Shown here: positions 2,202-20,565 of the stretch, piece by piece
How the letters are laid out: every line of letters starts with the position of its first letter
Position numbering within the stretch: the stretch's first letter is position 1
Origin: a virus
IMG/VR virus record: IMGVR_UViG_3300001041_000045
Coordinates: 1 to 31,404 of that record
Length of the DNA: 31,404 nt
Strand: one strand, 5' to 3'
Position numbers and translations under genes: made by a program
The notes under the pieces: model-generated
What the model saw: only the letters and a program-made list of their open reading frames with translations
Database searches by the model: none
Told to the model about the DNA's origin: nothing

Positions 2202-2471
2202 ATGGCAAAAATATATAAATTCCCTGCTGTTGCTGTTGTCGCTGTCAGTGATAATGAATTTGAATTAACTCTTGATGATATACCTGATATACCTGATATA
2301 GATTATGCTCAAATGTTTAGAAATAAATCTACATGCTATAAGTGTGGTAAATCACTAAATCTTAGTGACTATGCAAATACAATTTATAGTGTGAGAGAAT
2401 CAACAGGATATAGTAATGAAGTCGAAATCTGTAGCGAATGTATATTGGGATTTTTAGGAAATGCAATTTAA
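2202..2471 (+). CDS. Small zinc-finger-like protein, 89 aa
   Basis: I chose the ATG at 2202 because GGAG (2189-2192) is well spaced for it; the in-frame ATG at 2187 overlaps that site. The N-terminus has a DIPDIPDID run from a short DNA tandem repeat. The C-terminal half carries CYKCGKSL and CSECI, two CxxC knuckles about 35 residues apart, which probably bind one zinc ion. Such small zinc-ribbon proteins are common in Bacillota phages and may bind nucleic acid or a host protein. It is the last gene of the operon, followed by a terminator. No specific function is recognised. Confidence 0.6.
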   Translation: MAKIYKFPAVAVVAVSDNEFELTLDDIPDIPDIDYAQMFRNKSTCYKCGKSLNLSDYANTIYSVRESTGYSNEVEICSECILGFLGNAI

Positions 2472-2480
2472 TAATCAAAA

Positions 2481-2514
2481 AACAACCAAGTGAAAATTAT
2501 CTTGGTTGTTTTGG
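2481..2514 (+). terminator. Probable intrinsic terminator
   Basis: AACAACCAAG (2481-2490) pairs perfectly with CTTGGTTGTT (2501-2510), 10-base loop, followed by a short T-rich stretch. The T tract is modest. Confidence 0.6.
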
Positions 2515-2656
2515 TGTTTAAAGTTTGAATGAAACTGAGATTTTATCATGATTTTCATTTTTCTAAATGCTTATAAATTAAGGGTTTAGAGCATGTGTCA
2601 ATTTTTGGAAATTTTGATATTTTTGATGGATTTTTAAGATTGTAAAAATAATTGTA

Positions 2657-2685
2657 TTGACAAATTGGAAAAAATATGTTACAAT
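2657..2685 (+). promoter_or_regulatory. Upstream tandem promoter
   Basis: TTGACA (2657-2662), 17-base spacer, TACAAT (2680-2685), with an extended -10 (ATATGTTACAAT). Confidence 0.7.
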
Positions 2686-2758
2686 AAAGTTGTATGGAAA
2701 TTTATATATCTAATTATGAAAAGTATATATGAGTGACAAAATACAAATATAAAAATGC

Positions 2759-2787
2759 TTGACATGAAATTTTGAATATGTTACAAT
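2759..2787 (+). promoter_or_regulatory. Downstream tandem promoter
   Basis: TTGACA (2759-2764), 17-base spacer, TACAAT (2782-2787). It has the same AATATGTTACAATA core as the promoter 102 bases upstream, so the two probably share control. Confidence 0.7.
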
Positions 2788-2896
2788 ACGTTTAGAAGTA
2801 TGAAAAAAAATAAAAATAATTTTATGGAACTTTTTTAAAATTTATGTGTCTAAGTAAGTAGGGAACAAATTATAAAACTAATTGGAGGAAGATATT

Positions 2897-3160
2897 ATGA
2901 GTTATGAAAAAATGAAAAATGATTTAAAAATGCTTATCAAGAATAATGATGAAATTAAACAAGAATTAAAAATGTTTGAAAAATTATTTCAAAGGCAACG
3001 TATACTAATAGAACATGGACAACAAATTGATAGTATGTATGCAAAACAATTTGATTTTATGTATTCTATGCTATCACAAGAACAAAGAATTATATTACAT
3101 CAAAAATTTAGCAATGAAAATGAATTGGTATTTGTAAAATCACAATTGTATTTAAATTAA
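2897..3160 (+). CDS. Hypothetical helical protein, 87 aa
   Basis: The ATG at 2897 follows GGAGG (2885-2889) with good spacing; an in-frame TTG at 2882 lies upstream of that site and is rejected. The protein is almost wholly helical and charged (MKNDLKMLIKNNDEIKQELK, then FEKLFQRQ), a likely coiled coil in its first half. It is driven by two tandem promoters, so it is probably well expressed, and is followed by a large inverted repeat. No family is recognised. Confidence 0.55.
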   Translation: MSYEKMKNDLKMLIKNNDEIKQELKMFEKLFQRQRILIEHGQQIDSMYAKQFDFMYSMLSQEQRIILHQKFSNENELVFVKSQLYLN

Positions 3161-3162
3161 AT

Positions 3163-3222
3163 TTTTTACTAGCATACTACAAATTGTTAATATAATTGTG
3201 ATTAGTAGTATGCTAGTAAAAA
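3163..3222. repeat. 18-bp perfect inverted repeat
   Basis: Arm TTTTTACTAGCATACTAC (3163-3180) is the exact reverse complement of 3205-3222; the spacer is 24 bases. It sits between two small genes upstream of the replication origin. The T run is on the 5' side of each arm, so it does not look like a normal intrinsic terminator. It may be a binding or partition site, or an RNA-stability hairpin. Confidence 0.8.
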
Positions 3223-3246
3223 TTAATAATGAGAAGGGATGGTATT

Positions 3247-3417
3247 ATGAAAACTACACAAGTAATTAGAAATTTTAATGATGCTAATTATTTATTAGAC
3301 AAAGGACATAGAATATATTCTATTGATAGAGATAGGAGGGATAGGAGATATTTAATATTTTATTTTGTGAACAATGAACAATTACAAAAAGATTTAAAGG
3401 ATATTACACCAAAATAA
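3247..3417 (+). CDS. Small DUF5659-like protein, 56 aa
   Basis: I chose the ATG at 3247 because GAGAAGGGA precedes it; the ATG at 3229 overlaps that site. The pattern ANYLLDKGHRIYSIDRDRRD followed by YLIFYFVNNEQLQKDL resembles DUF5659, small proteins in Bacillota phages and plasmids: a helix, a glycine turn, then two strands ending in an F.F pair and an acidic/amide stretch. The match is from memory of the pattern, not a search. The function of that family is unknown. It lies just upstream of the iterons; another protein of similar plan (3691-3879) lies just downstream of them. Confidence 0.5.
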   Translation: MKTTQVIRNFNDANYLLDKGHRIYSIDRDRRDRRYLIFYFVNNEQLQKDLKDITPK

Positions 3418-3423
3418 AATTAA

Positions 3424-3498
3424 ATTCTCCTATACACAAAATGTGATATGAAAATCATCATATTTGACTTTTATAACACAAAATGTGTATAGGAGAAT
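3424..3498. repeat. 15-bp inverted repeat spanning iterons 1 and 2
   Basis: ATTCTCCTATACACA (3424-3438) is the exact reverse complement of 3484-3498. The arms extend into the first two iterons, so a large cruciform or RNA hairpin could form over the start of the origin. Confidence 0.75.
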
Positions 3499-3556
3499 CA
3501 ATTTTTATAACACAAAATGTGTACTGCATAATAAAATTACACAACACAAAATGTGT
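3434..3556. repeat. Four iterons, core ACACAAAATGTGT (replication origin)
   Basis: Copies at 3434-3445 (last base differs), 3476-3488, 3510-3522 and 3544-3556; start-to-start distances are 42, 34 and 34 bases. Each core is a dyad (ACACA-AAA-TGTGT). Two copies share the longer context TTTTATAACACAAAATGTGTA. Directly repeated binding sites next to an AT-rich tandem array and a Rep-like gene are the standard layout of an iteron-regulated plasmid origin. Confidence 0.75.
3464..3493 (+). promoter_or_regulatory. Possible Rep-operon promoter overlapping iteron 2
   Basis: TTGACT (3464-3469), 18-base spacer, TATAGG (3488-3493). The spacer contains iteron 2, so Rep binding would block it, as in autoregulated iteron plasmids. 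The -10 box is weak. Confidence 0.35.
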
Positions 3557-3568
3557 ATACTTCCAGAG

Positions 3569-3630
3569 TGTATAAAGAACTAAATAGTATAAAGAATAAA
3601 ATAGTATAAAGAATAAAATAATATAAAGAT
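3569..3630. repeat. Four 17-bp AT-rich tandem repeats (likely unwinding element)
   Basis: TATAAAGA recurs at 3571, 3588, 3605 and 3622, exactly 17 bases apart; the best copies read AGTATAAAGAATAAAAT. The array directly follows the last iteron and is almost pure A/T, as expected for a DNA unwinding element, although it could also be a second protein-binding array. Confidence 0.75.
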
Positions 3631-3690
3631 ATATTCATAATTGCTAAAGCAATCATTTTATGATTTATAAATAAAATTAGGAGGATAATT

Positions 3691-3879: not shown

Positions 3880-3894
3880 ATGGAGGTTATAATT

Positions 3895-5169
3895 ATGAGT
3901 GAGAATTTAGAGAAAAAAGAAAAAAGTTTTATTATTTTACCACATAGTTGTTATGATAGTAAGGATATAAGTAATGAAGAATTAACTATACTTGCTTTAT
4001 TACATAGAAATTTTAATAATGCTACTTCAAGAAGTATATGTTCTATTAAAATGTTAATTGATTATATGCGTAAAGATAGCAGAATAGATAGAACAATAGT
4101 TAAAACTATTAAAGAAGCAATTAAATCTTTAATGAGTAAAAAATATAAATATAAATATAAAGATATAAAAGATAAAAAAGATTATATCATAGAAGAATTT
4201 TATATTACTGAATTAAGAGATATTTATTATAATTTAATTACAATTGATGATATTAAAAATATAGATTTTATATTTTACATTGGATTAACTAAACCTAAAA
4301 ATCAATTTATTCAGATTGATAATATTGATATTGATAAAATATTTGAACATATAAAAGGTGTAAGTTTAAATAAATTTGCTTTGGTTAGATATTATATTGC
4401 TTGTAGAAGAGTAATGCAAAATGAAGCAAATTTTGGATTTATTACTCAAAGTAAATTAAAATCATTAATAACTGATTCTAAAAGTATTCAAAGATATAAT
4501 AAGATACTCCAAGATGATTTAAATTTAATTAGATATTGCAATGATTATCTTACTCCTGATAAACATTATTGTAGTACATTTGTTGGTTTATATGAGGATG
4601 AAAAATCATTTAATAGTCAAGTAAAATATATAGTTGATGCACAAGGATTAATACCAACAGATAAAACTAAATCTAATCAAAAGAGAAGTACAAAACAAAA
4701 GATTAATGGTTTAACTAAAAAAGAATTAGAAAATAATTTGCTCAAAGAAGAAATTGAAAAATTAAAAGCAGAAAACGAAAAATATAAAGAATTGCAATAT
4801 AAAGAAAGCAAAAAGGATAAAAAGAAAAGAATAGAAAAAGAAGATGCAGAAATAGTTGAAGGTATTAATGATTTATATGGTGCTAATCAATATGAAGAAG
4901 AAGAAGAACAAATGAATCCTGATGATATTGTTCCTGAAAGTTTAAAAATAACTCAAGAATATTTACAAAAGCAAGAACAAAATGATGAATTAGATATTTG
5001 GGATAATGATGAAATTGATATTAATAGTATTTGGGGAGAAGAAAAAGTAGAAGCAAAAAAATGTATTATTTGCAAAGAATACTATACTGAAGTTACTGAT
5101 GTAGATGATTGGTGTCAAAGTTGTATTGATGAAAATAGAATTGTCAAAAGGTATCGTGGAAAATTTTAA
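3895..5169 (+). CDS. Plasmid-type replication initiator (Rep-like) protein
   Basis: 424 residues. The ATG at 3895 is used because GGAGG (3881-3885) is its Shine-Dalgarno sequence; the ATG at 3880 overlaps it. Residues about 10-75 (DISNEELTILALLHRNFNNA, then a helix and LIDYM.RKD...IVKTIKEAIKSLM) look like the winged-helix start of RepA/replisome-organiser proteins. Residues about 125-225 may hold a second winged helix, as in iteron-binding Rep proteins. From about 260 there is a basic, then strongly charged coiled-coil region (LLKEEIEKLKAENEKYKELQ) and an acidic linker. The C-terminus carries CIICKEYY and CQSC, a likely zinc finger and an unusual addition. It lies directly downstream of iterons and an AT-rich array and 37 bases before the RNA polymerase gene. 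The initiator role rests mainly on context and the N-terminal fold pattern. Confidence 0.65.
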   Translation: MSENLEKKEKSFIILPHSCYDSKDISNEELTILALLHRNFNNATSRSICSIKMLIDYMRKDSRIDRTIVKTIKEAIKSLMSKKYKYKYKDIKDKKDYIIEEFYITELRDIYYNLITIDDIKNIDFIFYIGLTKPKNQFIQIDNIDIDKIFEHIKGVSLNKFALVRYYIACRRVMQNEANFGFITQSKLKSLITDSKSIQRYNKILQDDLNLIRYCNDYLTPDKHYCSTFVGLYEDEKSFNSQVKYIVDAQGLIPTDKTKSNQKRSTKQKINGLTKKELENNLLKEEIEKLKAENEKYKELQYKESKKDKKKRIEKEDAEIVEGINDLYGANQYEEEEEQMNPDDIVPESLKITQEYLQKQEQNDELDIWDNDEIDINSIWGEEKVEAKKCIICKEYYTEVTDVDDWCQSCIDENRIVKRYRGKF

Positions 5170-5206: not shown

Positions 5207-7843
5207 ATGAAAAAAGAAAATAAAAATAATAATGTTTATATTATGTCTATTGAAGGTGCAGATTTATATGAGAATATGAATAGAGAGAATTATATTATTG
5301 ATGAAAATGGTAAAATAGTCACAGAGAAAAAAGAATTACATACTTCATTTGTTGGTATGTTTCCTCATTCTTCAGAATTAGTAAAATTAAAGGAAACAGG
5401 ACTTAAAACATTTGATAGCAAAAGATATAATAAAGTAATGACAAATGATATAATAAATGTGAAATTCAGGAAAGGTATTAAATCAGGAAAAGACATAGCA
5501 AAATCAATAAAAAAGAAAAATAAAGAGGATATTAGAATTGAATTCTTCAAAAGTAAAGATGATTGGGAAAGTATTAGTATTGACGATTTAAGAGAAAAAT
5601 TATATGTAGATGGATTTGAATTAGAAATTGAAGGTAAAAAAGTAAGGTATACTGTTTACAAACGGAGTAGTGCAAAAAGTCGCACTTCTCAGGTACTTTT
5701 TATAAAGGAATCAATGAGATATGAAATGATTAAATGGGCAAGGTTAGGAATGAATTTAGATGATAGAGATGATTGTGATTTCCCTTCATTATTAGCCTAT
5801 GAAAGTTTAGTTTCTTCAAGTGTAGATTATTTTATTAAAATTAATCCTGATAATATTCTTATTGTTGATGATGTTAAATCTATATTTCCTATTGATTGTA
5901 ATGTAGTTGAGAAGGATGAAGAAGGTAAGTTAGTTAGTAATCCAGTAGATAACTATATGATGGAAAATGATATTTTTGATGGTGAAGGTTTGCTACAATT
6001 GGAATATTTTCCAGAAGGTAAAACAATGCAATTATTACGTCAACATATGGCAAAATGTTGTGCTTTTGCATGTGATATTCAAAAGTTTCTTAGAGATAAT
6101 TGTCCTGATGATATTGATTTTGACACATGGAAAATAAATAATATGTTCAATGAACCAATGTTAGCTAGTGAAATACATATGATATTAACTCCTGCATCAT
6201 TGAAAGCCTTAAAATTTTCTGATATAAAAGGTAGTAAACCTAAAATGTGGAAACATTGGAAAGAAAAAGTTAAAAAAGAAAATAATCAATTTGGTGTTGT
6301 TAAATATGATAAAGAATCAAAAAGAGGTAGAGATTATGAAGATAATATTTTACAACAGACTTCATACCAGATGCTAAACAGTATGCCTATCTCATATAGT
6401 GATATGAAAGATTTAAGTTTCTTTGAATGTGAATATGTAATGGAATTAAAAAATAATGATGATACATATATTGAATATTTAAAGCAAAATGCAAATAATA
6501 TAAATTGCAACAATATGTTAGTTGATTTATATATGAAGAATAAGAATATAGTTAATTTAGATTTATTCAAAAACAAAAGAACAAAAGATATTCATAATTA
6601 TGTAAATCACGTTAAAAAAGGTAAAATTAGACTGAATGGTGATTACTGTACAATCCTTGGAAACGGTAAGGAATTATTATATCATGCTATAAGACAACTA
6701 CCAGTTGAAAAAGGTATCCTTAATTTTAAGGAATGGGAAAGTAAAATGATATTAAAGGATAATGAAATTTATACTACATTGCATGATTTTAATTGTGAAT
6801 ATGTTGGCTTTAGAAATCCACATACTGCTCAATCTAATGTATTGATAGTGAAAAATAAGAAAGTTAAATTCATTGAAGATTATTTTGTAATGAGTGATAA
6901 TATCATTTATGTAAATTCTATAAACTTCCCTATTTGTCGAATCTTATCAGGTCAAGACCTTGATAGTGATAATTTAGTATTATTTTCCAATTGTAAATTA
7001 TTAGAATTAGCAAGAAAATGTTACATAAAAAGTGATGAATCAAATTATCGTGTTTGTGTAAATAATGTAGCTAAATCTCCTGTACCATATGCAGTAAATT
7101 CTAGTGACCATGCTAAGATTGACAATATCCTTGCAAAATCACAATTCAATATAGGCACAGTAGTTAATTTAGGAGCACTATTTTTAAGTGAGTATTGGCA
7201 TAGGATTAAAAATAAAAATAATAAAGACTTAGATAAGTTATTAAATTGTATAGATATTTGTACAATTTTGTCAGAGATATCTATAGATAGTGCTAAGAGG
7301 TTATATGATATTGATATATCAGAACAAATTAAATATTTATATGATAGTGGATTGTTACGCAAAGAAAAACCTGATTTCTTTAAATATGTATCACAAAATG
7401 AAAAAATAACTACTAAACATTATGATACAGCTATGGATTATTTGTTTGATGCAATGGATAATTTACCTGATGCAAAATGGAAAAATACTATCACTATGAA
7501 TAATAGTAAACTTTTAAAAGATGTAGATACAAGTAAAGCAAAAGATAGACAAGTAAAAGGTATTATTGAAAATGTTGTAAAAATGTCAAATTCTATTAAA
7601 GCAATTGAAGCAACATATAAACTTATGGAAAAGTATAGTAAAATAGATAAGAAAGAAAAATATAATTCTATTGATGATGTTATATCTGATGGAATGTATC
7701 AAGTAAAAAAATACAAGGTTAAAATTGAAACAGTTGTAAAAATATTGCTAAGTGATGAATTTGAAGAATGTCAAAGAAAATTAGATTTATTAAATGCTCT
7801 TTACAAAGGACACAAAGAAAACTTTTTGCAAGCATTTAAATAA
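5207..7843 (+). CDS. YonO/QDE-1-like single-subunit RNA polymerase
   Basis: 878 residues; ATG at 5207 with AAGGGATGATGAT upstream. The signature GQDLDSDN places D584, D586 and D588 in the DxDxD motif that binds catalytic magnesium in the two-barrel RNA polymerases (multisubunit beta-prime, QDE-1-type RdRPs, SP-beta YonO, crAss-like phage polymerases); the usual DxDGD has Ser for Gly here. About 320 residues earlier, DGEG (258-261) and MQLLRQHMAKCCAF (274-287, with R278 and K283) match the conserved block of the first double-psi barrel in YonO-like proteins. Between them GFRNPHT (534-540) matches the conserved R-x-P segment before the active site. The size suits a YonO-type enzyme. It follows Rep by 37 bases, apparently in one operon ending at the hairpin at 7857-7894. 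By analogy it would transcribe phage genes; priming replication is another option. Assignment is by motif, without a database search. Confidence 0.75.
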   Translation: MKKENKNNNVYIMSIEGADLYENMNRENYIIDENGKIVTEKKELHTSFVGMFPHSSELVKLKETGLKTFDSKRYNKVMTNDIINVKFRKGIKSGKDIAKSIKKKNKEDIRIEFFKSKDDWESISIDDLREKLYVDGFELEIEGKKVRYTVYKRSSAKSRTSQVLFIKESMRYEMIKWARLGMNLDDRDDCDFPSLLAYESLVSSSVDYFIKINPDNILIVDDVKSIFPIDCNVVEKDEEGKLVSNPVDNYMMENDIFDGEGLLQLEYFPEGKTMQLLRQHMAKCCAFACDIQKFLRDNCPDDIDFDTWKINNMFNEPMLASEIHMILTPASLKALKFSDIKGSKPKMWKHWKEKVKKENNQFGVVKYDKESKRGRDYEDNILQQTSYQMLNSMPISYSDMKDLSFFECEYVMELKNNDDTYIEYLKQNANNINCNNMLVDLYMKNKNIVNLDLFKNKRTKDIHNYVNHVKKGKIRLNGDYCTILGNGKELLYHAIRQLPVEKGILNFKEWESKMILKDNEIYTTLHDFNCEYVGFRNPHTAQSNVLIVKNKKVKFIEDYFVMSDNIIYVNSINFPICRILSGQDLDSDNLVLFSNCKLLELARKCYIKSDESNYRVCVNNVAKSPVPYAVNSSDHAKIDNILAKSQFNIGTVVNLGALFLSEYWHRIKNKNNKDLDKLLNCIDICTILSEISIDSAKRLYDIDISEQIKYLYDSGLLRKEKPDFFKYVSQNEKITTKHYDTAMDYLFDAMDNLPDAKWKNTITMNNSKLLKDVDTSKAKDRQVKGIIENVVKMSNSIKAIEATYKLMEKYSKIDKKEKYNSIDDVISDGMYQVKKYKVKIETVVKILLSDEFEECQRKLDLLNALYKGHKENFLQAFK

Positions 7844-8566: not shown

Positions 8567-8932
8567 ATGAAAATATTAGAATATTTTGGATTTGGCAAGA
8601 AGGATAAAATAATTGAAAAATTGAATCAAAAGCAAAAAGAATTAGAAGTATACATGTTAATTAACAATAATTGTATATTAGTTAATAATTATATTTTACA
8701 ATCAATGATGAAAGATAATAGTAAAATATTGGAAGAACATGATAAGATAACAGAAATTTGTATAGAAGTAAAAAATAATATTGATAAATTAGTAGTAGAA
8801 TGTCAAGAAACAAGAGAAATTAATGAAGATGAAAAATTTAACTTACAAATATTCAGAAAGAAATTAAATGGCAATATGACAGAAGAAGAAAAAGATAAAA
8901 TGATGCAGGATTATAAGGATGGTAAGTGGTGA
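8567..8932 (+). CDS. Hypothetical coiled-coil protein, 121 aa
   Basis: ATG at 8567, one base after the preceding stop; its AGGAGG lies inside the end of the upstream gene, so the two are translationally coupled. The N-terminus MKILEYFGFGKKDKIIEKLN could be a short amphipathic helix. The rest is a charged helix with heptads (about 20-70, and ETREINEDEKFNLQIFRKKL near 87-106). No recognised family. The partner gene upstream suggests the pair work together. Confidence 0.55.
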   Translation: MKILEYFGFGKKDKIIEKLNQKQKELEVYMLINNNCILVNNYILQSMMKDNSKILEEHDKITEICIEVKNNIDKLVVECQETREINEDEKFNLQIFRKKLNGNMTEEEKDKMMQDYKDGKW

Positions 8933-9274
8933 AATAAGCTAAAAATTAATTATTTTTAATTATGTCTATAAAGTATTAATATTAGTAGGTTTATAGTAGT
9001 TTTTGCTATGCGTAAAAATGCGAAATTTTAAGGCTAGATTAAGAGATAATTTTTAAAAGGTATAAGTTTAGGTAGAGATAATTTAAGTGTCTTATTTAGG
9101 CTTAAATTTGCGTTTAAAAGACCAGTGGAAAGGGTGGTTAGATTTAGCCATCCTGTAGCTGTGGAGAGGGTGGACAGATTTTGGCTAATTTAGAGGTAAA
9201 TTTTAATCAAAAGTATTGTTATTGTTAGGTTTAAGAGAGGGGGACTTTGCCGAGGAAAGGATGTGATATGAAAA
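8933..9274 (+). other. 342-base gap with a G-rich imperfect direct repeat
   Basis: No confident gene. Near 9122-9195 two related units, starting GTGGAAAGGGTGG and GTGGAGAGGGTGG, each run on into AGATTT and GGC/GCC, and are notably G-rich for this genome. GGTGGTTA and TAGCCATC can pair. A weak frame of about 40 codons beginning at an ATA behind AAAAGG (about 9058-9060) covers the repeat (VERVVRF, VERVDRF) but has no support beyond being open. Confidence 0.4.
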
Positions 9275-13373: not shown

Positions 13374-13458
13374 TGTAGAAATTAATGCTAAGTAATTGAT
13401 ATGTAAGGGTTTTGTAAGTGTTTGATATTTGTTTGGTATTTTGAAAGTAGGTGAAAGG

Positions 13459-13905
13459 ATGGGAAAGTTAACTGTAACAGACGGTGAAAATGTGACTCCT
13501 GCTGAGTTACGTTTATTGAAAGTTTTACAAAATCCTGATAATTTTGGAAAAACTCACACAGAAAAGGCAAAATTGGCAGATGTTAGTAGAACTTATTACT
13601 ATGAAATGATTAGAAAACCAAGATTTATGGAAGTTATGAAAAATACTGTTAATGATTTACTATGTGATGAATTGTTTCCTATTATAGATTCATTAAAAAA
13701 GAAGGCTAAAGAAGGTAGTTACAATCATCAAAAGTTATATTTTGAAATGATTGGTTTGTATTCACAGAAGAAAGATATTAATGTTAATGTGAATAACGGT
13801 ATTGAGAAGCATTTAAAAGAACATCAAGAATATAAAGAATATATGGCAAGTATGGGCGAAGTAGTTGAAGATATTGAATACTTTGTTAATGATGAAGATG
13901 ATTAA
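13459..13905 (+). CDS. terS: Terminase small subunit
   Basis: 148 residues. I use the ATG at 13459 (AGGTGAAAGG upstream); the frame is open from an in-frame TTG at 13429. The N-terminal half (TPAELRLLKVLQNPDNFGKT, then HTEKAKLADVSRTYYYEMIR) is a helix-turn-helix of the phBC6A51-type small terminases, followed by a helical oligomerisation region and an acidic tail. TerS binds the packaging site and hands DNA to the large subunit. It precedes the large terminase, from which it is separated by a 583-base non-coding stretch that probably contains its binding site. Flanking copies of AATACTATGTGA lie on both sides of the gene. Confidence 0.7.
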   Translation: MGKLTVTDGENVTPAELRLLKVLQNPDNFGKTHTEKAKLADVSRTYYYEMIRKPRFMEVMKNTVNDLLCDELFPIIDSLKKKAKEGSYNHQKLYFEMIGLYSQKKDINVNVNNGIEKHLKEHQEYKEYMASMGEVVEDIEYFVNDEDD

Positions 13906-14231
13906 GTTTGAATAAAATTTTCGTTTTATCATGTTATTCTATCTATAGAAATACTATGTGAATTTCGCTGAGATAATAGTATTTATATAATTGTTAGCAT
14001 AAGTTCCGAATAATACAGCGTAAATTATATTATAAACCTTGTACCATTGATTCTATAAGGGTTTGTTGGTAGTTCTCTAGTTTACATAATATTTATTATC
14101 GGAAGTTCCGTATATAATTAGTTTCGCTTATAATTGAACGGGTAAGTTTATAGTTACATAAGGCTAGGGTTGTGAATACACATTGTACTTTCATAGCTAA
14201 TACTTGGACACTTGAACACCCAAAGTATGTT

Positions 14232-14353
14232 AAAATTGTGTGATAAATGTTAATGAAAATTGTGGAAAGTTAGTAAAATTGTGGTAAAATTACGTTGTTT
14301 CGTTATTACGGAATTACGTTATAACGGAAGGGGGTATCCCCAAACGTACCCCC
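14232..14353. other. Candidate cos/pac packaging site
   Basis: Direct repeats of AAAATTGTG(G), then paired 13-mers CGTTATTACGGAA/CGTTATAACGGAA 16 bases apart (the second containing the palindrome CGTTATAACG), then GGGGGTA (14330-14336) and TACCCCC (14347-14353) forming a 7-bp GC stem, with GGGG-TAT-CCCC as an alternative. 30 of the 60 bases at 14301-14360 are G or C, far above the surroundings. Repeated terminase-binding sites beside a GC-rich cut site match the general plan of cos regions. Inference. Confidence 0.4.
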
Positions 14354-14401
14354 ACACCCACAAATATAATATATGGCTATCAGAGTACATATATAAAATT
14401 G

Positions 14402-14418
14402 CCAATATACTCTAAACC
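14402..14418 (-). promoter_or_regulatory. Conserved intergenic motif, minus-strand copy
   Basis: Read on the minus strand this region contains AATGGTTTAGAGTATAT, almost the same as the plus-strand copy at 7912-7928 and related to GGTTTAGAGCATG at 2583-2595. All three are intergenic. Function unknown. Confidence 0.4.
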
Positions 14419-14488
14419 ATTGATTTTACTATGTTTTTAACACTAAGTGTAATGTCAAATAATCAATATATAAACAGGAGTTGCTATA

Positions 14489-14629
14489 ATGTCTAGTAAA
14501 ATTGACAAATTATTAAATGAATTAAACTATTCAATAACAAGCAAACATACAACTAAAAAACAACGTAAAGCAAAGCAACGTGAATATCTCTTAGAAGAGA
14601 AAAGAAAAAGAGGTGAACATATAAAATAA
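14489..14629 (+). CDS. Small basic protein upstream of the large terminase, 46 aa
   Basis: ATG at 14489 with AGGAG eight bases upstream. It is very basic in its second half (KKQRKAKQREYLLEEKRKRG), so probably nucleic-acid binding, or simply a short coupling ORF. Its TAA (14627-14629) overlaps the ATA (14626-14628) that I take as the terminase start, in the way ATGA junctions couple genes. Its last codons (AGA GGT GAA) provide that start's Shine-Dalgarno sequence. A ribosomal frameshift fusing it to the terminase is an alternative. Confidence 0.5.
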   Translation: MSSKIDKLLNELNYSITSKHTTKKQRKAKQREYLLEEKRKRGEHIK

Positions 14630-16350
14630 CTATTAAAAAATCAGAGCAACACAAGTTAAAAATAACTAAATCAGAGCAAAAAAAAGGTTTAACTGAAGCA
14701 GATATTATACAAAAATCATTAACTGAATTCCCTTTTTATGCTTATAAAAATTTAAAAATACGCACTAAAGAAGGTGAATTAAAAAAATTTAAACTAAATT
14801 CAATTCAAATTAAATTAGATAAAATAATTGAAAAACAACGTAGTTTAAATAAACCAGTTAGATTAGTAATCCTTAAAGCTAGACAAGAGGGCGCTTCAAC
14901 ATATACAGAAGGTAAATTATTTCATTTAACTTCAACACAGGAAAACATTAATACAACAATTATAGCACACTTAGAAGAATCCACAACTAACTTATTTAAT
15001 ATGTCTAAATTGTTTTTAGATGAATTACCTGATGAAATGCGTCCTATGGTTAAATCAAATAATTCACAACAATTAATATTTGAAAATCCAACAAAAGAAG
15101 TAAAAGAGAAACAAGAAAATCCAGGTTTACGTTCTAAAATGAGAATGATTACAGCTAAAGGTTCTGGTGCAGGACGTTCAAATACTATTCACTATTTACA
15201 CGTATCTGAATTAGCTTTTATGCCTTCACCAAAAGAAACAATGTTAGGATTATTACAATCAGTACCATATTCTAAAAATTCAATAATTATCGTTGAATCT
15301 ACTGCAAATGGTATAGGTGATTATTTTTATGAATTATATACTAATGCCAAAAAAGGATTAAATGATTTTATACCTTTATTTTTTGCATGGTTTGAACACA
15401 AAGATTATCAAATGGAATTAGATGAAGGTGAAGTATTAAAATTAACTGATGAAGAAATTGAGCTTCAAAAAGCATATAATTTATCTCCTGAACAATTAAA
15501 ATGGCGTAGATGGTGTATTAAGAATAATTGTAATGGTGATGAAGAAAAGTTTAAACAAGAATATCCATCAAATGATAATGAAGCATTTTTATCATCTGGT
15601 AGACCTGTTTTTAATCATAATAAATGTGAATATTACAAAAATAATAAATGTAAAAATCCTTTAAAAAAAGGTAATATAATTGAAGTAAATAAAAGAGTAC
15701 AATTTAATTCTAGTAAAAAAGGTTATCTATCTATATGGGAATTTCCTATTGATGGACAAGAATACATAATATCTGTAGATACTGCTGAAGGTTTAAAACA
15801 TGGTGACTATTCATGTGCAGATGTTTTAAATAGGAAAAACAAAGAACAAGTTGCACAATTTCATGGACATATTGACCCTGACTTATTTGCTAAAGAAATT
15901 GAAATGTTAGCAAGATTTTACAATCGTGCATTAGTTGTTCCAGAATTAAATAATACTTCTGGTGGTAGTTTCTTATCCTCACTTAAACCAATTTATAAAA
16001 ACATCTATAAACGAAAAGAAAATGTTGATAGCGTAAGCAATAAAACTATTCAAGAATATGGTTGGCGTACTATGCAAAACAATAGAAAATTAATTATTGA
16101 TAATCTTATTCGTATGTTTAGAGATGATTTAATAAAAATAAATTGCAAAGAAACAATAGAAGAATTTATTACTTTTGTCTATGATGATAAAGGTAAACCA
16201 CAAGCACAATCTCTAAAACATGATGATAGAGTGCTATCGCTGGCTATATGTGCTTATGTTGATTCACAAAAATACTATAATCCAGATGAAGCAAATGAAA
16301 TAGATGATTATGAAGAATATAGACCAGTTAATTCAAGGACAGGCTATTAG
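14626..16350 (+). CDS. terL: Terminase large subunit (ATPase-nuclease), apparent ATA start
   Basis: 574 residues. The packaging motor cuts and pumps DNA into the procapsid. Walker A: LKARQEGAST with K84; Walker B: YLHVSELAF with S194-E195; coupling motif STANG (225-229). The RNase H-like nuclease has D385 (SVDTAEG), E440 (VVPELN) and D533/D534 (KHDDRV). The first ATG in frame is at 15001, which would delete Walker A; no ATG, GTG, TTG or CTG lies in frame between the stop at 14614-14616 and 15000. The ATA at 14626 has AGAGGTGA (14609-14616) nine bases upstream and overlaps the preceding stop, so I take it as the start. The ATT at 14632 is an alternative, as is a -1 frameshift from the 46-residue ORF. 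Confidence 0.85.
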   Translation: MTIKKSEQHKLKITKSEQKKGLTEADIIQKSLTEFPFYAYKNLKIRTKEGELKKFKLNSIQIKLDKIIEKQRSLNKPVRLVILKARQEGASTYTEGKLFHLTSTQENINTTIIAHLEESTTNLFNMSKLFLDELPDEMRPMVKSNNSQQLIFENPTKEVKEKQENPGLRSKMRMITAKGSGAGRSNTIHYLHVSELAFMPSPKETMLGLLQSVPYSKNSIIIVESTANGIGDYFYELYTNAKKGLNDFIPLFFAWFEHKDYQMELDEGEVLKLTDEEIELQKAYNLSPEQLKWRRWCIKNNCNGDEEKFKQEYPSNDNEAFLSSGRPVFNHNKCEYYKNNKCKNPLKKGNIIEVNKRVQFNSSKKGYLSIWEFPIDGQEYIISVDTAEGLKHGDYSCADVLNRKNKEQVAQFHGHIDPDLFAKEIEMLARFYNRALVVPELNNTSGGSFLSSLKPIYKNIYKRKENVDSVSNKTIQEYGWRTMQNNRKLIIDNLIRMFRDDLIKINCKETIEEFITFVYDDKGKPQAQSLKHDDRVLSLAICAYVDSQKYYNPDEANEIDDYEEYRPVNSRTGY

Positions 16351-16366
16351 AAGGGAGGTTTAAATC

Positions 16367-18262
16367 ATAGCAAAACCTAATCAAAAAAATTTAAATAAAT
16401 ATATGAATAGAATTATATTATCAGAACAAAATGTAGTTAATAATTACAAAGATAAATGGGAAAGATTCTATCAAATGTATAATAACTATGTTGATGCTAT
16501 TATTGACCCTGCAACACAAAAACAAATAACAACTACTAGCAATATTTCTATTCCGTATGCTTATATTCAAGTAGCGACAATTTTGCCGAGGTTAGTAGAA
16601 ACATTATTTTCTGCAAGACCTTATATCACAGTGAAGGATAGGGAAGTTAACGACTACAATTTTGCAACAAATAATCAAGTTTTATTAGATTATCAAATGA
16701 ATGAGCGAATGAATTTACGTTCTAAGTTTGCAGAAGGATTAAAAACTTTATGTATATATGGAACAACTATCGCTTATACAGGATGGAAGTATGATACAAG
16801 AAATATAATTAAAAAACAATTAGTTGATATTATTGATGAAGAAACTAATCAGCCATTTGTTGATGAAGTTACTAGACAACCAATTCAAAGATATCAACCT
16901 GTTAAAACTAAAGAAATTCTATATGATGACCCTGATGTATATTTTGTTGATTTGTTAAATTTCTTTGTAGACCCATATGCAGAAGATATTGATACAGCAA
17001 GATGGTGTGGACATATCACATATGAAACAAAATCAGAAATACAAAAGAAACATGATAGTGAAATATATGTTGTTGATTGGAAAAAAATAACTTCTTCTAA
17101 TTCATATAATAAACCTAAACAAGAAAGAATGGCATCTATAGGAATTGCTATAAATAATTCTTCTCCAAATTCTGAAGATGATTTATATGAAGTTATTCAC
17201 TATTGGGAAGATAATAGACATGTAATTATTATTGAAAGAAGTTATATAGCAAAAGATGAAGAAAATCCATACTGGCATAAAAAGAAACCATATGATATGT
17301 CAAGATATGACTCAATCCCAGGTGAATTTTATGGCAAAGGTGTTATGGATAGAATTGAACCTTTAATTGATGAATTAAACACATATAGAAATATGCGAAT
17401 TGACTATGCTGCTATGTCAAATCGTAGAATGTTTAAATATAAAAAAGGTTCAGGTATAAGTAAAAAAGATTTGACATGGCGTCCAAATGGTTTAATTCCT
17501 GTAAATGAGATGGATGATATAGAAGAAATTGGCGTTCAAAATGTATCACCTCAAATGTTTAATCAAGAAGAAACGGTGAAACAGGATATCATGGATGCAA
17601 CCGGGGCTCAATCAGTGATAATGGGAACATCTTCCAGAGATACAGCAACAGGTACAATGACTAAAGATTCAAATGCTTCAATTAGATTTAAAGAAATTAT
17701 TACTTCTATTGAAAAAGATTTACTAGTTAATATTGCTAGAAAGATGATGCAATTAAATCAACAATTTTTAGATACTGAAAGAGTATTAAGAATTTCTAAT
17801 ATTAAAGGTGATGATTGGGTAAATATTAATCCAGACGAAATACAAGGGGAATTTGATTGTATTGCAATGGGTTCAAGTGTAGAACCATTAGCTAATAAAG
17901 AAGCATATAAACAAAGATTATTGCAATTATATCAAATATCTAATACAGACCCAATATTCCAAGCATTTCCTGAAAAGAAATTATATTTAATGAAACTTAT
18001 TTTCCAAGCATTTGATATGCAAAATATTGAAGAATTAATTCCCACAGAAGAAGAAGTAAAAGCAAAACAAATGCAACAAGTACCAGTACCACCTAATGAA
18101 CAAACTTTACCTGAAAATACTTTACCTCAAAATGATATGCAATTACCACCAGATTTAATGAATCAATTAATGGGTATGCAAAATACTGAAAACTTTTCAG
18201 CAAATGCAAGTGGTGGATTAAATCGTTCAATTATGGAAGGACAAGGTTTATTACCTGAATAG
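16367..18262 (+). CDS. Portal protein
   Basis: 631 residues from an ATA at 16367, which has GGGAGG (16353-16358) at ideal distance; the first in-frame ATG (16403) has no Shine-Dalgarno sequence and would lose 12 residues (AKPNQKNLNKYM). The portal forms the dodecameric ring at the capsid vertex through which DNA enters. The pattern of N-terminal helices, a beta-rich wing (VYFVDLLNFFVDPYAEDIDT), then GEFYGKGVMDRIEPLIDELN, and the crown helix region GTMTKDSNASIRFKEIITSI matches podovirus (P22/T7-type) portals of Bacillota and other bacteria. The C-terminus is Pro/Gln/Asn-rich. It directly follows the large terminase and precedes the head genes. Confidence 0.8.
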   Translation: MAKPNQKNLNKYMNRIILSEQNVVNNYKDKWERFYQMYNNYVDAIIDPATQKQITTTSNISIPYAYIQVATILPRLVETLFSARPYITVKDREVNDYNFATNNQVLLDYQMNERMNLRSKFAEGLKTLCIYGTTIAYTGWKYDTRNIIKKQLVDIIDEETNQPFVDEVTRQPIQRYQPVKTKEILYDDPDVYFVDLLNFFVDPYAEDIDTARWCGHITYETKSEIQKKHDSEIYVVDWKKITSSNSYNKPKQERMASIGIAINNSSPNSEDDLYEVIHYWEDNRHVIIIERSYIAKDEENPYWHKKKPYDMSRYDSIPGEFYGKGVMDRIEPLIDELNTYRNMRIDYAAMSNRRMFKYKKGSGISKKDLTWRPNGLIPVNEMDDIEEIGVQNVSPQMFNQEETVKQDIMDATGAQSVIMGTSSRDTATGTMTKDSNASIRFKEIITSIEKDLLVNIARKMMQLNQQFLDTERVLRISNIKGDDWVNINPDEIQGEFDCIAMGSSVEPLANKEAYKQRLLQLYQISNTDPIFQAFPEKKLYLMKLIFQAFDMQNIEELIPTEEEVKAKQMQQVPVPPNEQTLPENTLPQNDMQLPPDLMNQLMGMQNTENFSANASGGLNRSIMEGQGLLPE

Positions 18263-18277
18263 GAATGGAGTAATTAT

Positions 18278-18493
18278 ATGGAATATAGTAAAGAAGATAG
18301 ATATAATATTTCCAATATGCTTGAAAATGATGGATGGAAGTTAATGGAAGCATATATTAATCAGATGAAAGATTATTATATGAATGAATTAGCTACATGT
18401 AAATTAGAAAATATAATATTTAATCGTGCAAAACTTGAAGCATATAAAAGTATTATAGAACAAATTAATTTTATTTTAGATTCTGAAGATTAA
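18278..18493 (+). CDS. Small head protein between portal and scaffold, 71 aa
   Basis: ATG at 18278 behind GGAATGGAG. It is all helical (ISNMLENDGWKLMEAYINQM, then DYYMNELATCKLENIIFN and a final helix KLEAYKSIIEQINFIL). Small helical proteins with a GWK-type motif are often found between portal and scaffold genes in related phages. The role is unknown, perhaps head assembly or a portal accessory. It is co-transcribed with its neighbours. Confidence 0.55.
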   Translation: MEYSKEDRYNISNMLENDGWKLMEAYINQMKDYYMNELATCKLENIIFNRAKLEAYKSIIEQINFILDSED

Positions 18494-18536
18494 CTACATA
18501 GTTAATATATATAAAAAATAATAGGAGGTTTATATT

Positions 18537-19370
18537 ATGAGTTTTTTAGGATTAGGAGAACCTATAACCGATGTTACTACTTCCCCTACTGGACAAGAAG
18601 TATTTAGTGACATGGCAGGTGATTCTCAATCTAGTGTAAATGAGGAAGTTGAAGTAGAAGTTAATAATGACCAACAATTTCAAGATGATGAAACTGGTCA
18701 GGAAGAACAAGATAATTCTACTGAAGAGGAAGTAGAAGTAGAAGATAATTCTACTACTAATGAAAAATTAGCTGGTAAATTTAAAAGTGTTGATGATTTA
18801 GTTAAAGGTTATAAAAATCTTGAAAAAGCATTTCATCAATCAAGACAACCACAACAACAAAATAATAGTCAACAACAACAACCAGTTAAATCACAACAAG
18901 AAGTATCAGATGCTATTTTTCAAGCTATGACTGAAGACCCTGCATCTGTAATTCAATATTTTGTACAACAGGCTTTAGCACCAATTCAACAAGAAAAAGC
19001 AGACATGCAATTGCAAAATAATTTACAAGAATTATCTAAAGATTATTCTGAAATTTCTGATGAAAAAGGTTTAGCTGATATGTTTATTAAGGCAAAAGAA
19101 ATTGCTTTTGAATTAGGTAATCCTAATTTATCAGAATCTAAACGTATATTAAAAATGGCTTGCCAAGAATTATATCCTAAGTCAACATCTAAACTTGTAA
19201 AACAAGTAAAGAATGAAACACAAAAAGAAATACTTGAAAATATGAAAAGTAAGCAAAGTGTAAATACAAATAACAATATGAAACAATCAAAACAGAATAA
19301 TGGTAGTAAAACACCAGAAGAATTGATTATTGAAGGAATATTCAATGCTGGTAGAAAAAATATATTTTAA
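18537..19370 (+). CDS. Capsid scaffolding protein
   Basis: 277 residues; ATG at 18537 behind AGGAGG. The N-terminal 75 residues are highly acidic and repetitive (EEVEVEVNN, EEEVEVEDN). Then comes the block KLAGKFKSVDDLVKGYKNLE, a common signature of podovirus scaffolds, a Gln-rich linker, a helical middle and a basic C-terminus (KQNNGSKTPEELIIEGIFNA) that would bind the capsid protein. Scaffolds direct procapsid assembly and leave before packaging. The position directly before the major capsid gene supports this. Confidence 0.75.
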   Translation: MSFLGLGEPITDVTTSPTGQEVFSDMAGDSQSSVNEEVEVEVNNDQQFQDDETGQEEQDNSTEEEVEVEDNSTTNEKLAGKFKSVDDLVKGYKNLEKAFHQSRQPQQQNNSQQQQPVKSQQEVSDAIFQAMTEDPASVIQYFVQQALAPIQQEKADMQLQNNLQELSKDYSEISDEKGLADMFIKAKEIAFELGNPNLSESKRILKMACQELYPKSTSKLVKQVKNETQKEILENMKSKQSVNTNNNMKQSKQNNGSKTPEELIIEGIFNAGRKNIF

Positions 19371-19407
19371 AAATAAAAAATAAAAATTATAGGGGGAATA
19401 TTTAAAC

Positions 19408-20565
19408 ATGGGAAATATTAATGGAGTATTAACAACCGCAAACATTGTAACTGCAAAACAAATTATAGATATGAGTAACGTAATCGCAACTCTATCTCCG
19501 ACTGAAACACCTTTTATTTCACTTTTAAAGCAAGTAAAAACTATGAAGGAAGATGCTACCAATCCTAAATTTCATTGGTTAGAAGATGATTTAGTTGGTA
19601 GAAAAACACAATTAAATATGGCTGGCAATGCTGCTGCTGATGTAACAAAATTGATTTTTGATGATGGTACTATTTTTGCAATAGGTGATATTGTTAATGC
19701 TGTAGCTACTAATGAAAATATGATTGTAACTGCATTAAATCCTGATGGTGACAACGTGAACGAAATTACTGTGACTAGGGCATATGGCACTACTACGGCT
19801 GCTATTATTGCTGATAATGCTGTAGTATTAATTGTTGGTAATGTTAGTCAGGAATTTTCTGGTACTAGAGTTGCTAAAACTACTGAAGTAGAAGATAAAT
19901 TTAACTATACTCAAATCTTCAAAACACCTTTTGGTATTTCTGGTACTGCTAAAGCTACTTCTGTTTATGGTGGAGTAGATGAATTAGCTTATCAGAGAAA
20001 TAAAGCTGGTATTCAACACTTGATTGATATTGGTAGAGCATTTTATTTTGGACAGAAGAAATTAGATACTTCTGGTACTTATGTAGCTAGAGCAACAGGT
20101 GGTATTTTATCTTTTGCAACAGAAAACATATATAATGCCAACGGTACATTGACACAAGCTAATTTTGAGCAGAATTTATGTAAAAATGCTTTTCTTTATG
20201 GTAATGATGAGAAAATGCTTTTTGCAGATGCTACATTACTTTCTGTTATCAATGGTTGGGCATTAGGTAAACTTCAAATTAATCAAGAAGCAAAGAAATA
20301 CGGATTATCTGTATTCCAATACATTTCTCCGTTTGGTATTTTAAATATTGTTTATGACAGAATTTTAAATGATTCTACATATAATGGTGTTGTTCTTGAT
20401 GTTAAAGAAGTAAAATATCGTCCGTTAAAAGGTAGAGATACTAAACTTGAAACTAATCTTCAAGATAATGATGAAGATGGTATCAAAGAACAGTATATTA
20501 CTGAATGTGGTTTGGAAATTCGCAATCCTAAGAAACATGCTTCTATCTATGGTGTAACTGGTTAA
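19408..20565 (+). CDS. Major capsid protein (DUF5309/SU10-type, HK97 fold)
   Basis: 385 residues; ATG at 19408 behind AGGGGGAA. Features of the SU10/DUF5309 major capsid family: N-terminal TETPFISLLKQVK after a short helix, FHWLEDDL, an insertion rich in beta strands (about 70-140), then SGTAKATSVYGGVDELAYQR and the helix with LIDIGRAFYFGQ, GGILSF, and a C-terminal LEIRNPKKHASIYGV. It builds the icosahedral shell. It follows the scaffold, and a strong terminator follows it, allowing high expression of head genes. Confidence 0.8.
   Translation: MGNINGVLTTANIVTAKQIIDMSNVIATLSPTETPFISLLKQVKTMKEDATNPKFHWLEDDLVGRKTQLNMAGNAAADVTKLIFDDGTIFAIGDIVNAVATNENMIVTALNPDGDNVNEITVTRAYGTTTAAIIADNAVVLIVGNVSQEFSGTRVAKTTEVEDKFNYTQIFKTPFGISGTAKATSVYGGVDELAYQRNKAGIQHLIDIGRAFYFGQKKLDTSGTYVARATGGILSFATENIYNANGTLTQANFEQNLCKNAFLYGNDEKMLFADATLLSVINGWALGKLQINQEAKKYGLSVFQYISPFGILNIVYDRILNDSTYNGVVLDVKEVKYRPLKGRDTKLETNLQDNDEDGIKEQYITECGLEIRNPKKHASIYGVTG

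What the first reader, a model, noticed from the sequence alone, without database searches (positions are those of the whole stretch)
5207..7843. YonO/QDE-1-like single-subunit RNA polymerase encoded directly behind a plasmid-type Rep
Seen: D584-x-D586-x-D588 in GQDLDSDN, an upstream block MQLLRQHMAKCCAF, and GFRNPHT between them, in an 878-residue protein. Known: this order of conserved blocks is that of two-barrel RNA polymerases such as SP-beta YonO and crAss-like phage enzymes. Inference: the phage carries its own DNA-directed polymerase, made with the replication initiator from one operon, so it may serve late transcription, replication priming, or both. The DxDSD variant and the link to an iteron replicon are unusual.
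Basis: partly seen in the sequence, partly recalled or inferred. Interest (0 to 1): 0.85.

Follow-up and report, generated by a model that had tools for sequence, protein, structure and literature searches.

The report
Phage YonO-type RNA polymerase, DxDSD lineage
A small (about 39 kb) virus of Bacillota-type bacteria carries its own one-protein RNA polymerase of the YonO kind, and it belongs to a large, unstudied lineage in which the supposedly universal glycine of the catalytic motif (DxDGD) is replaced by serine.

Summary
The 878-residue ORF at 5207-7843 has every block quoted, at the stated residues. It is a YonO-family two-barrel RNA polymerase. It hits the PHROG that contains SPbeta YonO (557 bits, full length), and its family profile aligns to YonO at E 1.7e-17 with the catalytic triad in register. 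A confident AlphaFold model (pLDDT 90) finds only QDE-1 and plant RDR2 as significant PDB neighbours. Fourteen residues, including D584/D586/D588, R278, K283 and R536, are invariant in 114 sequences with YonO. The DxDSD variant is not peculiar to this phage: it marks one strongly supported clade (104 Ser, 2 Thr, 1 Gly of 107) of Bacillota (pro)phage enzymes; all but one of the YonO-type enzymes outside it keep DxDGD. The Rep claim is weaker: no sequence family, a low-confidence Rep-like winged-helix fold, 17-bp tandem repeats upstream here and in the closest relative, and a circular 39.3-kb genome without an integrase. Most likely role: a non-virion polymerase, made early with the Rep-like protein, that transcribes the late genes, as shown for YonO. 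Replication priming has no support. Side finding: group I introns interrupt relatives' genes at the catalytic codons.

The parts
5207..7843 (+). YonO-family single-chain two-barrel RNA polymerase, 878 aa
   Evidence: phrog_8308 557 bits over residues 6-878, the same PHROG as YonO; hhalign of the family to YonO E 1.7e-17; AlphaFold pLDDT 89.9, PDB hits QDE-1/RDR2
6026..6067 (+). MQLLRQHMAKCCAF, residues 274-287, first-barrel basic motif (invariant R278 and K283)
   Evidence: aligned with YonO VRLPWVK; R and K invariant in 114 of 114
6806..6826 (+). GFRNPHT, residues 534-540 (invariant R536 and P538)
   Evidence: aligned with YonO RSPH; invariant in 114 of 114; QDE-1 has RSP in register, but that match is not significant (E 2.5)
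6956..6970 (+). DLDSD, residues 584-588, catalytic Asp triad with Ser in place of Gly
   Evidence: aligned with YonO DNDGD; the three Asp invariant in 114 of 114, position 587 Ser in 104
7151..7297 (+). Long helical region with invariant G650, N654, D694, K697, just after the second barrel
   Evidence: also the position of the second recurrent intron site in relatives
3880..5169 (+). Rep-like protein of 429 aa (predicted winged-helix modules, C-terminal Cys cluster), same strand, 37 bp upstream of the polymerase
   Evidence: homologues directly upstream of the polymerase in L012 and L010 and just downstream in L043; best fold match the WH1 domain of a replication protein, E 8.6e-3, on a low-confidence model
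3570..3629 (+). Iteron-like 17-bp tandem repeat GTATAAAGAATAAAATA, 3.5 copies
   Evidence: a 17-bp repeat of two similar copies also lies upstream of the Rep homologue in L012 at 8607-8640
3434..3556 (+). Four copies of ACACAAAATGTG(T) at 42, 34, 34 bp spacing; possible iterons or operators
   Evidence: not found upstream of the L012 Rep homologue
8931..9115 (+). Conserved non-coding block just after the polymerase cluster; candidate late promoter or leader (inference)
   Evidence: about 70% identical in L012 13290-13474 and L010 4142-4326; no conserved reading frame; flanking genes 7969 and 8567 have no homologue in those loci
13429..20565 (+). Start of the late cluster: small terminase 13429-13905, large terminase (first ATG 15001, frame open from further upstream), portal 16403-18262, major head protein 19408-20565
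   Evidence: PHROG matches; translation of the terminase frame upstream of 15001

Best explanation
The gene encodes a single-chain, DNA-directed RNA polymerase of the YonO family. Two double-psi barrels in one polypeptide form the active site: the second barrel holds the Mg-binding triad D584/D586/D588, the first supplies R278 and K283 (family membership and invariance shown; barrel geometry inferred from the model's match to QDE-1/RDR2). It is made early by host RNA polymerase together with a Rep-like replication initiator (inferred from gene order and a 37-bp gap). It then switches on the phage's late cluster of packaging, head, tail and lysis genes, probably from a promoter in the non-coding region after the polymerase cluster (inferred by analogy with SPbeta). 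The phage is probably a circular, integrase-less 39.3-kb phage-plasmid with no detected family A DNA polymerase, so it would lean on the host to replicate but not to make late RNA.
For: Sequence: phrog_8308, 557 bits; YonO in the same PHROG, 1220 bits; hhalign E 1.7e-17, motifs in register; 14 residues invariant in 114 sequences with YonO. Structure: pLDDT 89.9, pTM 0.85; 21 PDB hits with E below 0.001, all QDE-1 or RDR2; phage 'RNA dependent RNA polymerase' E 6.9e-57. Function by homology: YonO is a DNA-dependent RNAP, its Asp triad is needed for catalysis, and 37 late genes stay silent without it (PMC5467207). Position: next to Rep and upstream of RuvC, terminase, portal and head genes, not inside the structural cluster. 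Selection: dN/dS 0.18. Genome: ends of contig G001 overlap with a 1-bp length difference, giving about 39.3 kb; no integrase or resolvase; no family A DNA polymerase.
Against: No activity or transcript data exist for any DxDSD enzyme that I could find. Ser in place of the motif Gly could change activity. No late promoter was identified: the YonO promoter sequence was unknown when PMC5467207 was written, and the conserved block is found only in three close relatives. Global TM-scores to QDE-1/RDR2 are moderate (0.42-0.52), with 10-12% identity. Promoter-like sites in this AT-rich DNA are no more frequent than in shuffles, so host-driven early expression is not shown.
Confidence: 0.8

Rival explanations
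1. It is a virion RNA polymerase, packaged and injected to transcribe early genes, as in crAss-like phages or P23-45 gp96.
For: Related two-barrel enzymes do this in crAss-like phages and P23-45 (PMC7886860, PMC10770324).
Against: The gene lies beside the Rep-like and lysogeny genes, far from the head and tail genes, and is a stand-alone 878-aa protein not fused to a tape-measure or other virion protein. Its closest studied relative, YonO, is a late-gene polymerase.
Confidence: 0.1
2. It serves plasmid replication, for example by making primers or melting the origin by transcription, working with the adjacent Rep.
For: Adjacent to the Rep-like gene in the window, L012 and L010; tandem repeats lie upstream.
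Against: Most relatives have no Rep homologue nearby; only L012, L010 and L043 do. YonO, in the same family, transcribes late genes. No polymerase-specific feature was found at the repeats.
Confidence: 0.07
3. It is an RNA-dependent RNA polymerase acting on transcripts, like QDE-1 and RDR2, as several database entries call it.
For: Closest solved folds are QDE-1 and RDR2; Thomasclavelia and Psychrobacillus phage homologues are annotated 'RNA-dependent RNA polymerase'.
Against: No experiment behind those names was seen; they fit labels carried over from fold or sequence similarity. The nearest enzyme with biochemistry, YonO, is DNA-dependent (PMC5467207).
Confidence: 0.05
4. It is a degenerate, inactive homologue, the Ser marking a loss of catalytic constraint.
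For: The motif Gly is called universally conserved in RNA polymerases (PMC7598289, PMC8287921), and it is lost here.
Against: All three Asp and the basic residues are invariant in all 107 clade members, dN/dS is 0.18, and Ser itself is kept in 104 of 107.
Confidence: 0.02

Closest known systems
YonO of Bacillus phage SPbeta (PMC5467207)
   Same: Same PHROG, full-length homology; Asp triad, R-x-P, R-x4-K, IGxxxN and IDxAK motifs in register; gene lies between early and late regions
   Different: DxDSD instead of DNDGD; about 21% identity; host phage 39.3 kb instead of 134 kb; Rep-like neighbour instead of yonN/yonP; lacks the C-terminal Cys cluster seen in YonO
QDE-1 (Neurospora) and RDR2 (Arabidopsis, maize), eukaryotic RNA-silencing polymerases
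   Same: Best solved-structure matches, one chain with two barrels, same motif order
   Different: 10-12% identity, eukaryotic, RNA-templated role, DxDGD
crAss-like phage virion polymerase (phi14:2 gp66) and P23-45 gp64/gp96
   Same: Single-chain two-barrel phage polymerases with DxDxD
   Different: No significant PDB match to them; virion fusion in some; different host phyla
Thomasclavelia phage TR-TP1/TP2 'RNA-dependent RNA polymerase'
   Same: Same PHROG (216 bits), isolated gut phages of Bacillota
   Different: DFDGD; outside the DxDSD clade; 90-101 kb genomes

Membership tests
YonO-type single-chain two-barrel RNA polymerase | Full-length sequence homology to YonO | tested here: met
   phrog_8308 557 bits, residues 6-878; YonO in the same PHROG; hhalign E 1.7e-17
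YonO-type single-chain two-barrel RNA polymerase | Catalytic DxDxD triad | tested here: met
   D584/D586/D588 invariant in 114 of 114, in register with YonO D535/D537/D539
YonO-type single-chain two-barrel RNA polymerase | Gly inside the triad (DxDGD; called universally conserved in multisubunit RNA polymerases, a feature of the wider superfamily rather than a published criterion for YonO-like enzymes) | tested here: not met
   Ser587; the clade is 104 Ser, 2 Thr, 1 Gly. Not taken as excluding membership, since the metal-binding residues are intact and homology is full length; it is the reason for calling this a variant
YonO-type single-chain two-barrel RNA polymerase | Basic residues of the first barrel | tested here: met
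   R278 and K283 invariant in 114 of 114 and aligned with YonO VRLPWVK
YonO-type single-chain two-barrel RNA polymerase | Two double-psi barrels in one chain | tested here: met
   Indirect: full-chain fold match of a pLDDT 90 model to QDE-1 and RDR2, probability 1.00. Coordinates not inspected
YonO-type single-chain two-barrel RNA polymerase | DNA-dependent RNA synthesis; transcription of late genes | not testable with these tools
   Needs in vitro and in vivo work
Iteron plasmid replication initiator (Rep_3-like) | Match to a Rep sequence family | tested here: not met
   No Pfam or NCBIfam Rep match; Rep3_N absent at E up to 10; no plasmid or phage hit
Iteron plasmid replication initiator (Rep_3-like) | Two winged-helix domains | tested here: inconclusive
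   Low-confidence model (pLDDT 56); best match a replication protein WH1 domain, E 8.6e-3, probability 1.00; RepE54 at E 1.0
Iteron plasmid replication initiator (Rep_3-like) | Tandem iterons next to the gene | tested here: met
   17 bp x 3.5 at 3570-3629, 34 bp x 2.7 at 3469-3559; 17 bp x 2 in L012
Phage-plasmid | Circular genome, virion genes, Rep, no integrase | tested here: inconclusive
   G001 ends overlap; terminase, portal and head genes; no integrase or resolvase. Overlap could also be circular permutation, and the relative L012 has a tyrosine recombinase

The most novel reading that the evidence does not exclude
The DxDSD lineage is a functionally distinct branch of two-barrel RNA polymerases, in which a side-chain hydroxyl sits inside the metal-binding loop and alters catalysis (metal use, fidelity or substrate choice), fixed once and kept across Bacillota phages.
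Probability: 0.3. Interest if true: 0.75.

Novelty: new variant of a known kind. Interest (0 to 1): 0.55.

Why it matters
The DxDGD loop is described as universally conserved in multisubunit RNA polymerases (PMC7598289, PMC8287921). A lineage of over 100 phage enzymes that has fixed Ser (or Thr) there, with one apparent return to Gly, is a natural mutagenesis experiment on the most conserved part of the transcription active site. Because the phage is small and encodes the polymerase next to its probable replication initiator, it is a compact system in which the promoter used by YonO-type enzymes, unknown when YonO was characterised, could be mapped. The only records of the searched phage collection that fall in the clade are unverified metagenome assemblies; no cultured phage does.

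Tried and rejected
Direct PDB sequence search with the protein: no hit. With a 5-row profile, QDE-1 appears only at E 2.5 below chance hits, and with a 34-row profile there is none, so sequence alone does not link it to QDE-1; the fold and YonO do. Pfam and NCBIfam give nothing for the polymerase. The Rep-like protein has no relative among phage or plasmid records, and the polymerase is on no PLSDB plasmid. The 13-mer ACACAAAATGTGT is not a phage-wide promoter motif: all four copies are in one cluster, and total counts are within chance. A pattern search for the conserved AGGTATAAGTTTAGGT block in relatives and SPbeta gave scattered weak matches, and the sequence model found it only in the three genomes it was built from. 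RNA folding of that block: weak, three sequences only. Rfam on the window: nothing credible.

Full report
Observation. Window 5207-7843 (+) is a single 878-codon frame. The three motifs are at residues 274-287, 534-540 and 584-588 as stated. The gene starts 37 bp after the stop of a 429-aa frame at 3880-5169. The window is phage DNA: small and large terminase, portal, head-tail and major head proteins match PHROGs downstream.

What the protein is. It matches phrog_8308 over residues 6-878 with 557 bits; SPbeta YonO matches the same PHROG with 1220 bits. An alignment of 34 relatives from viral contigs aligns to YonO by hhalign with E 1.7e-17, probability 98.9, placing DLDSD on DNDGD, RNPH on RSPH and LLRQHMAK on VRLPWVK. 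An AlphaFold model on that alignment has mean pLDDT 89.9 and pTM 0.85. Against the PDB its 21 matches below E 0.001 are all QDE-1 or RDR2 (E 6.6e-16 to 1.3e-11); against viral models the best is an annotated phage 'RNA dependent RNA polymerase' (E 6.9e-57). TM-scores are moderate (0.42-0.52), as expected at 10-12% identity. In 114 full-length sequences including YonO, D258, G259, R278, K283, G472, R536, P538, D584, D586, D588, G650, N654, D694 and K697 never vary. Selection is purifying (dN/dS 0.18 against L012).

The DxDSD variant. Relatives were retrieved by patterns that do not include the motif. On a tree of 114 proteins, 107 form a clade with 100% SH-aLRT and a long stem (1.47 changes per column). 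Within it the residue is Ser in 104, Thr in two (L124, L132) and Gly in one (L066, Halobacillus). Outside it, YonO, Perkons, TR-TP1, PMBT24, L144 and a second Paenibacillus enzyme have Gly, and BUCT082 has Tyr. The tree is a quick search with some long branches; the count of changes is a minimum. Published descriptions call DxDGD universally conserved in multisubunit enzymes (PMC7598289, PMC8287921), and no held paper contains 'DxDSD' with polymerase. Most named hosts are Bacillota: a Desulfotomaculum MAG is nearest (59%), then Paenibacillus, Clostridium, Lysinibacillus and gut Lachnospiraceae, with a few MAG contigs labelled Treponema, Anaeroplasma or Thermoplasmata, which may be misbinned.

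The genome. Contig G001 carries the same phage. Its end lies at window 9365 and its start at about window 9229, the two copies of the overlap differing by one base in a G run, which gives about 39.3 kb if circular or permuted. Neither G001 nor the window has a tyrosine or serine recombinase, and G001 has no family A DNA polymerase. The nearest relative L012 does have a tyrosine recombinase.

The Rep. P0002 matches only phrog_20872, of unknown function. Homologues sit directly upstream of the polymerase in L012 and L010, and about 0.5 kb downstream of it in L043. A four-sequence model is of low confidence (pLDDT 56), yet its best PDB match is the WH1 domain of a replication protein (E 8.6e-3, probability 1.00) and RepE appears further down. 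Upstream are 3.5 copies of a 17-bp unit and 2.7 of a 34-bp unit; L012 keeps a 17-bp repeat in the same place. The label 'iteron-type initiator' is therefore plausible and unproven.

How it probably works. YonO is DNA-dependent, needs its Asp triad, and is required for 37 SPbeta late genes read as one operon from a start upstream of yonK, which lies downstream of yonO (PMC5467207). The window polymerase lies in the same kind of position, after early genes and before the late cluster. A 185-bp non-coding block just after the polymerase cluster is about 70% identical in L012 and L010, although the adjacent genes have no homologue there. I propose it as a candidate late promoter or leader; this is inference. 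No evidence for priming was found.

Introns in relatives. In L007, L041/L042, L048, L049, L050, L117 and L133 the polymerase gene is interrupted at or within about two codons of the DxDSD codons, and in L007, L038/L039, L048, L050 and L117 again about 95 codons later. Rfam finds group I introns above threshold at the second site in L117, L050 and L007, and at the first site in L050 (49.9 bits against a threshold of 50) and L007 (32 bits, E 2e-4). In L007 the junction follows the exon-ends-in-U, intron-ends-in-G rule, read from the sequence. Disruption of the RNAP DxDxD motif by stops and frameshifts is also reported for Zeta crAss-like phages (PMC7886860). The window copy is uninterrupted.

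Noticed in passing
L007 4275-4997 and 5284-5561; L041 11683-11976; L048 11560-12443; L049 9702-9978; L050 2409-3258; L117 11521-12644; L133 11392-12428: In relatives the polymerase gene is interrupted at the catalytic DxDSD codons, with a second recurrent site about 95 codons later; several inserts are Rfam group I introns.
   Followed up: partly
L065 6865-9657 (-): A Paenibacillus locus carries a second, YonO-like polymerase (931 aa, DYDGD) divergent from and next to its DxDSD polymerase.
   Followed up: partly
L136 (Goe11) 2378-3684 and L137 (phi3T) 2378-2794: SPbeta-group phages have yonO itself split in two frames by an insert at about codon 626, in Goe11 with a reading frame inside. No Rfam intron match in these two.
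   Followed up: partly
window 14600-15001: The large terminase frame, with a Walker-A-like GAST segment, is open upstream of its first ATG (15001) but has no ATG, GTG or TTG start; a rare start codon, frameshift or splicing would be needed.
   Followed up: partly
window 13925-14108; L012 17792-17905; L010 8604-8806: A second conserved block, about 70% identical, lies between the terminase genes and is in the opposite orientation in the two relatives; origin unknown.
   Followed up: no
L155 6280-8568 (-), 8808-9164 (-), 9491-9757 (-): Outside the window the same phage has a 762-aa P-loop ATPase on the minus strand, with distant homologues on three Bacillota plasmids, beside two small membrane-type proteins; role unclear.
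   Followed up: partly
L007 8424-9021; L038 13122-13731: ROOL RNA genes lie downstream of the polymerase in two gut relatives.
   Followed up: no
L141 (Bacillus phage BUCT082), 925-aa frame from 1228: Its polymerase-like protein reads DFDYD at the motif, Tyr in place of Gly.
   Followed up: no
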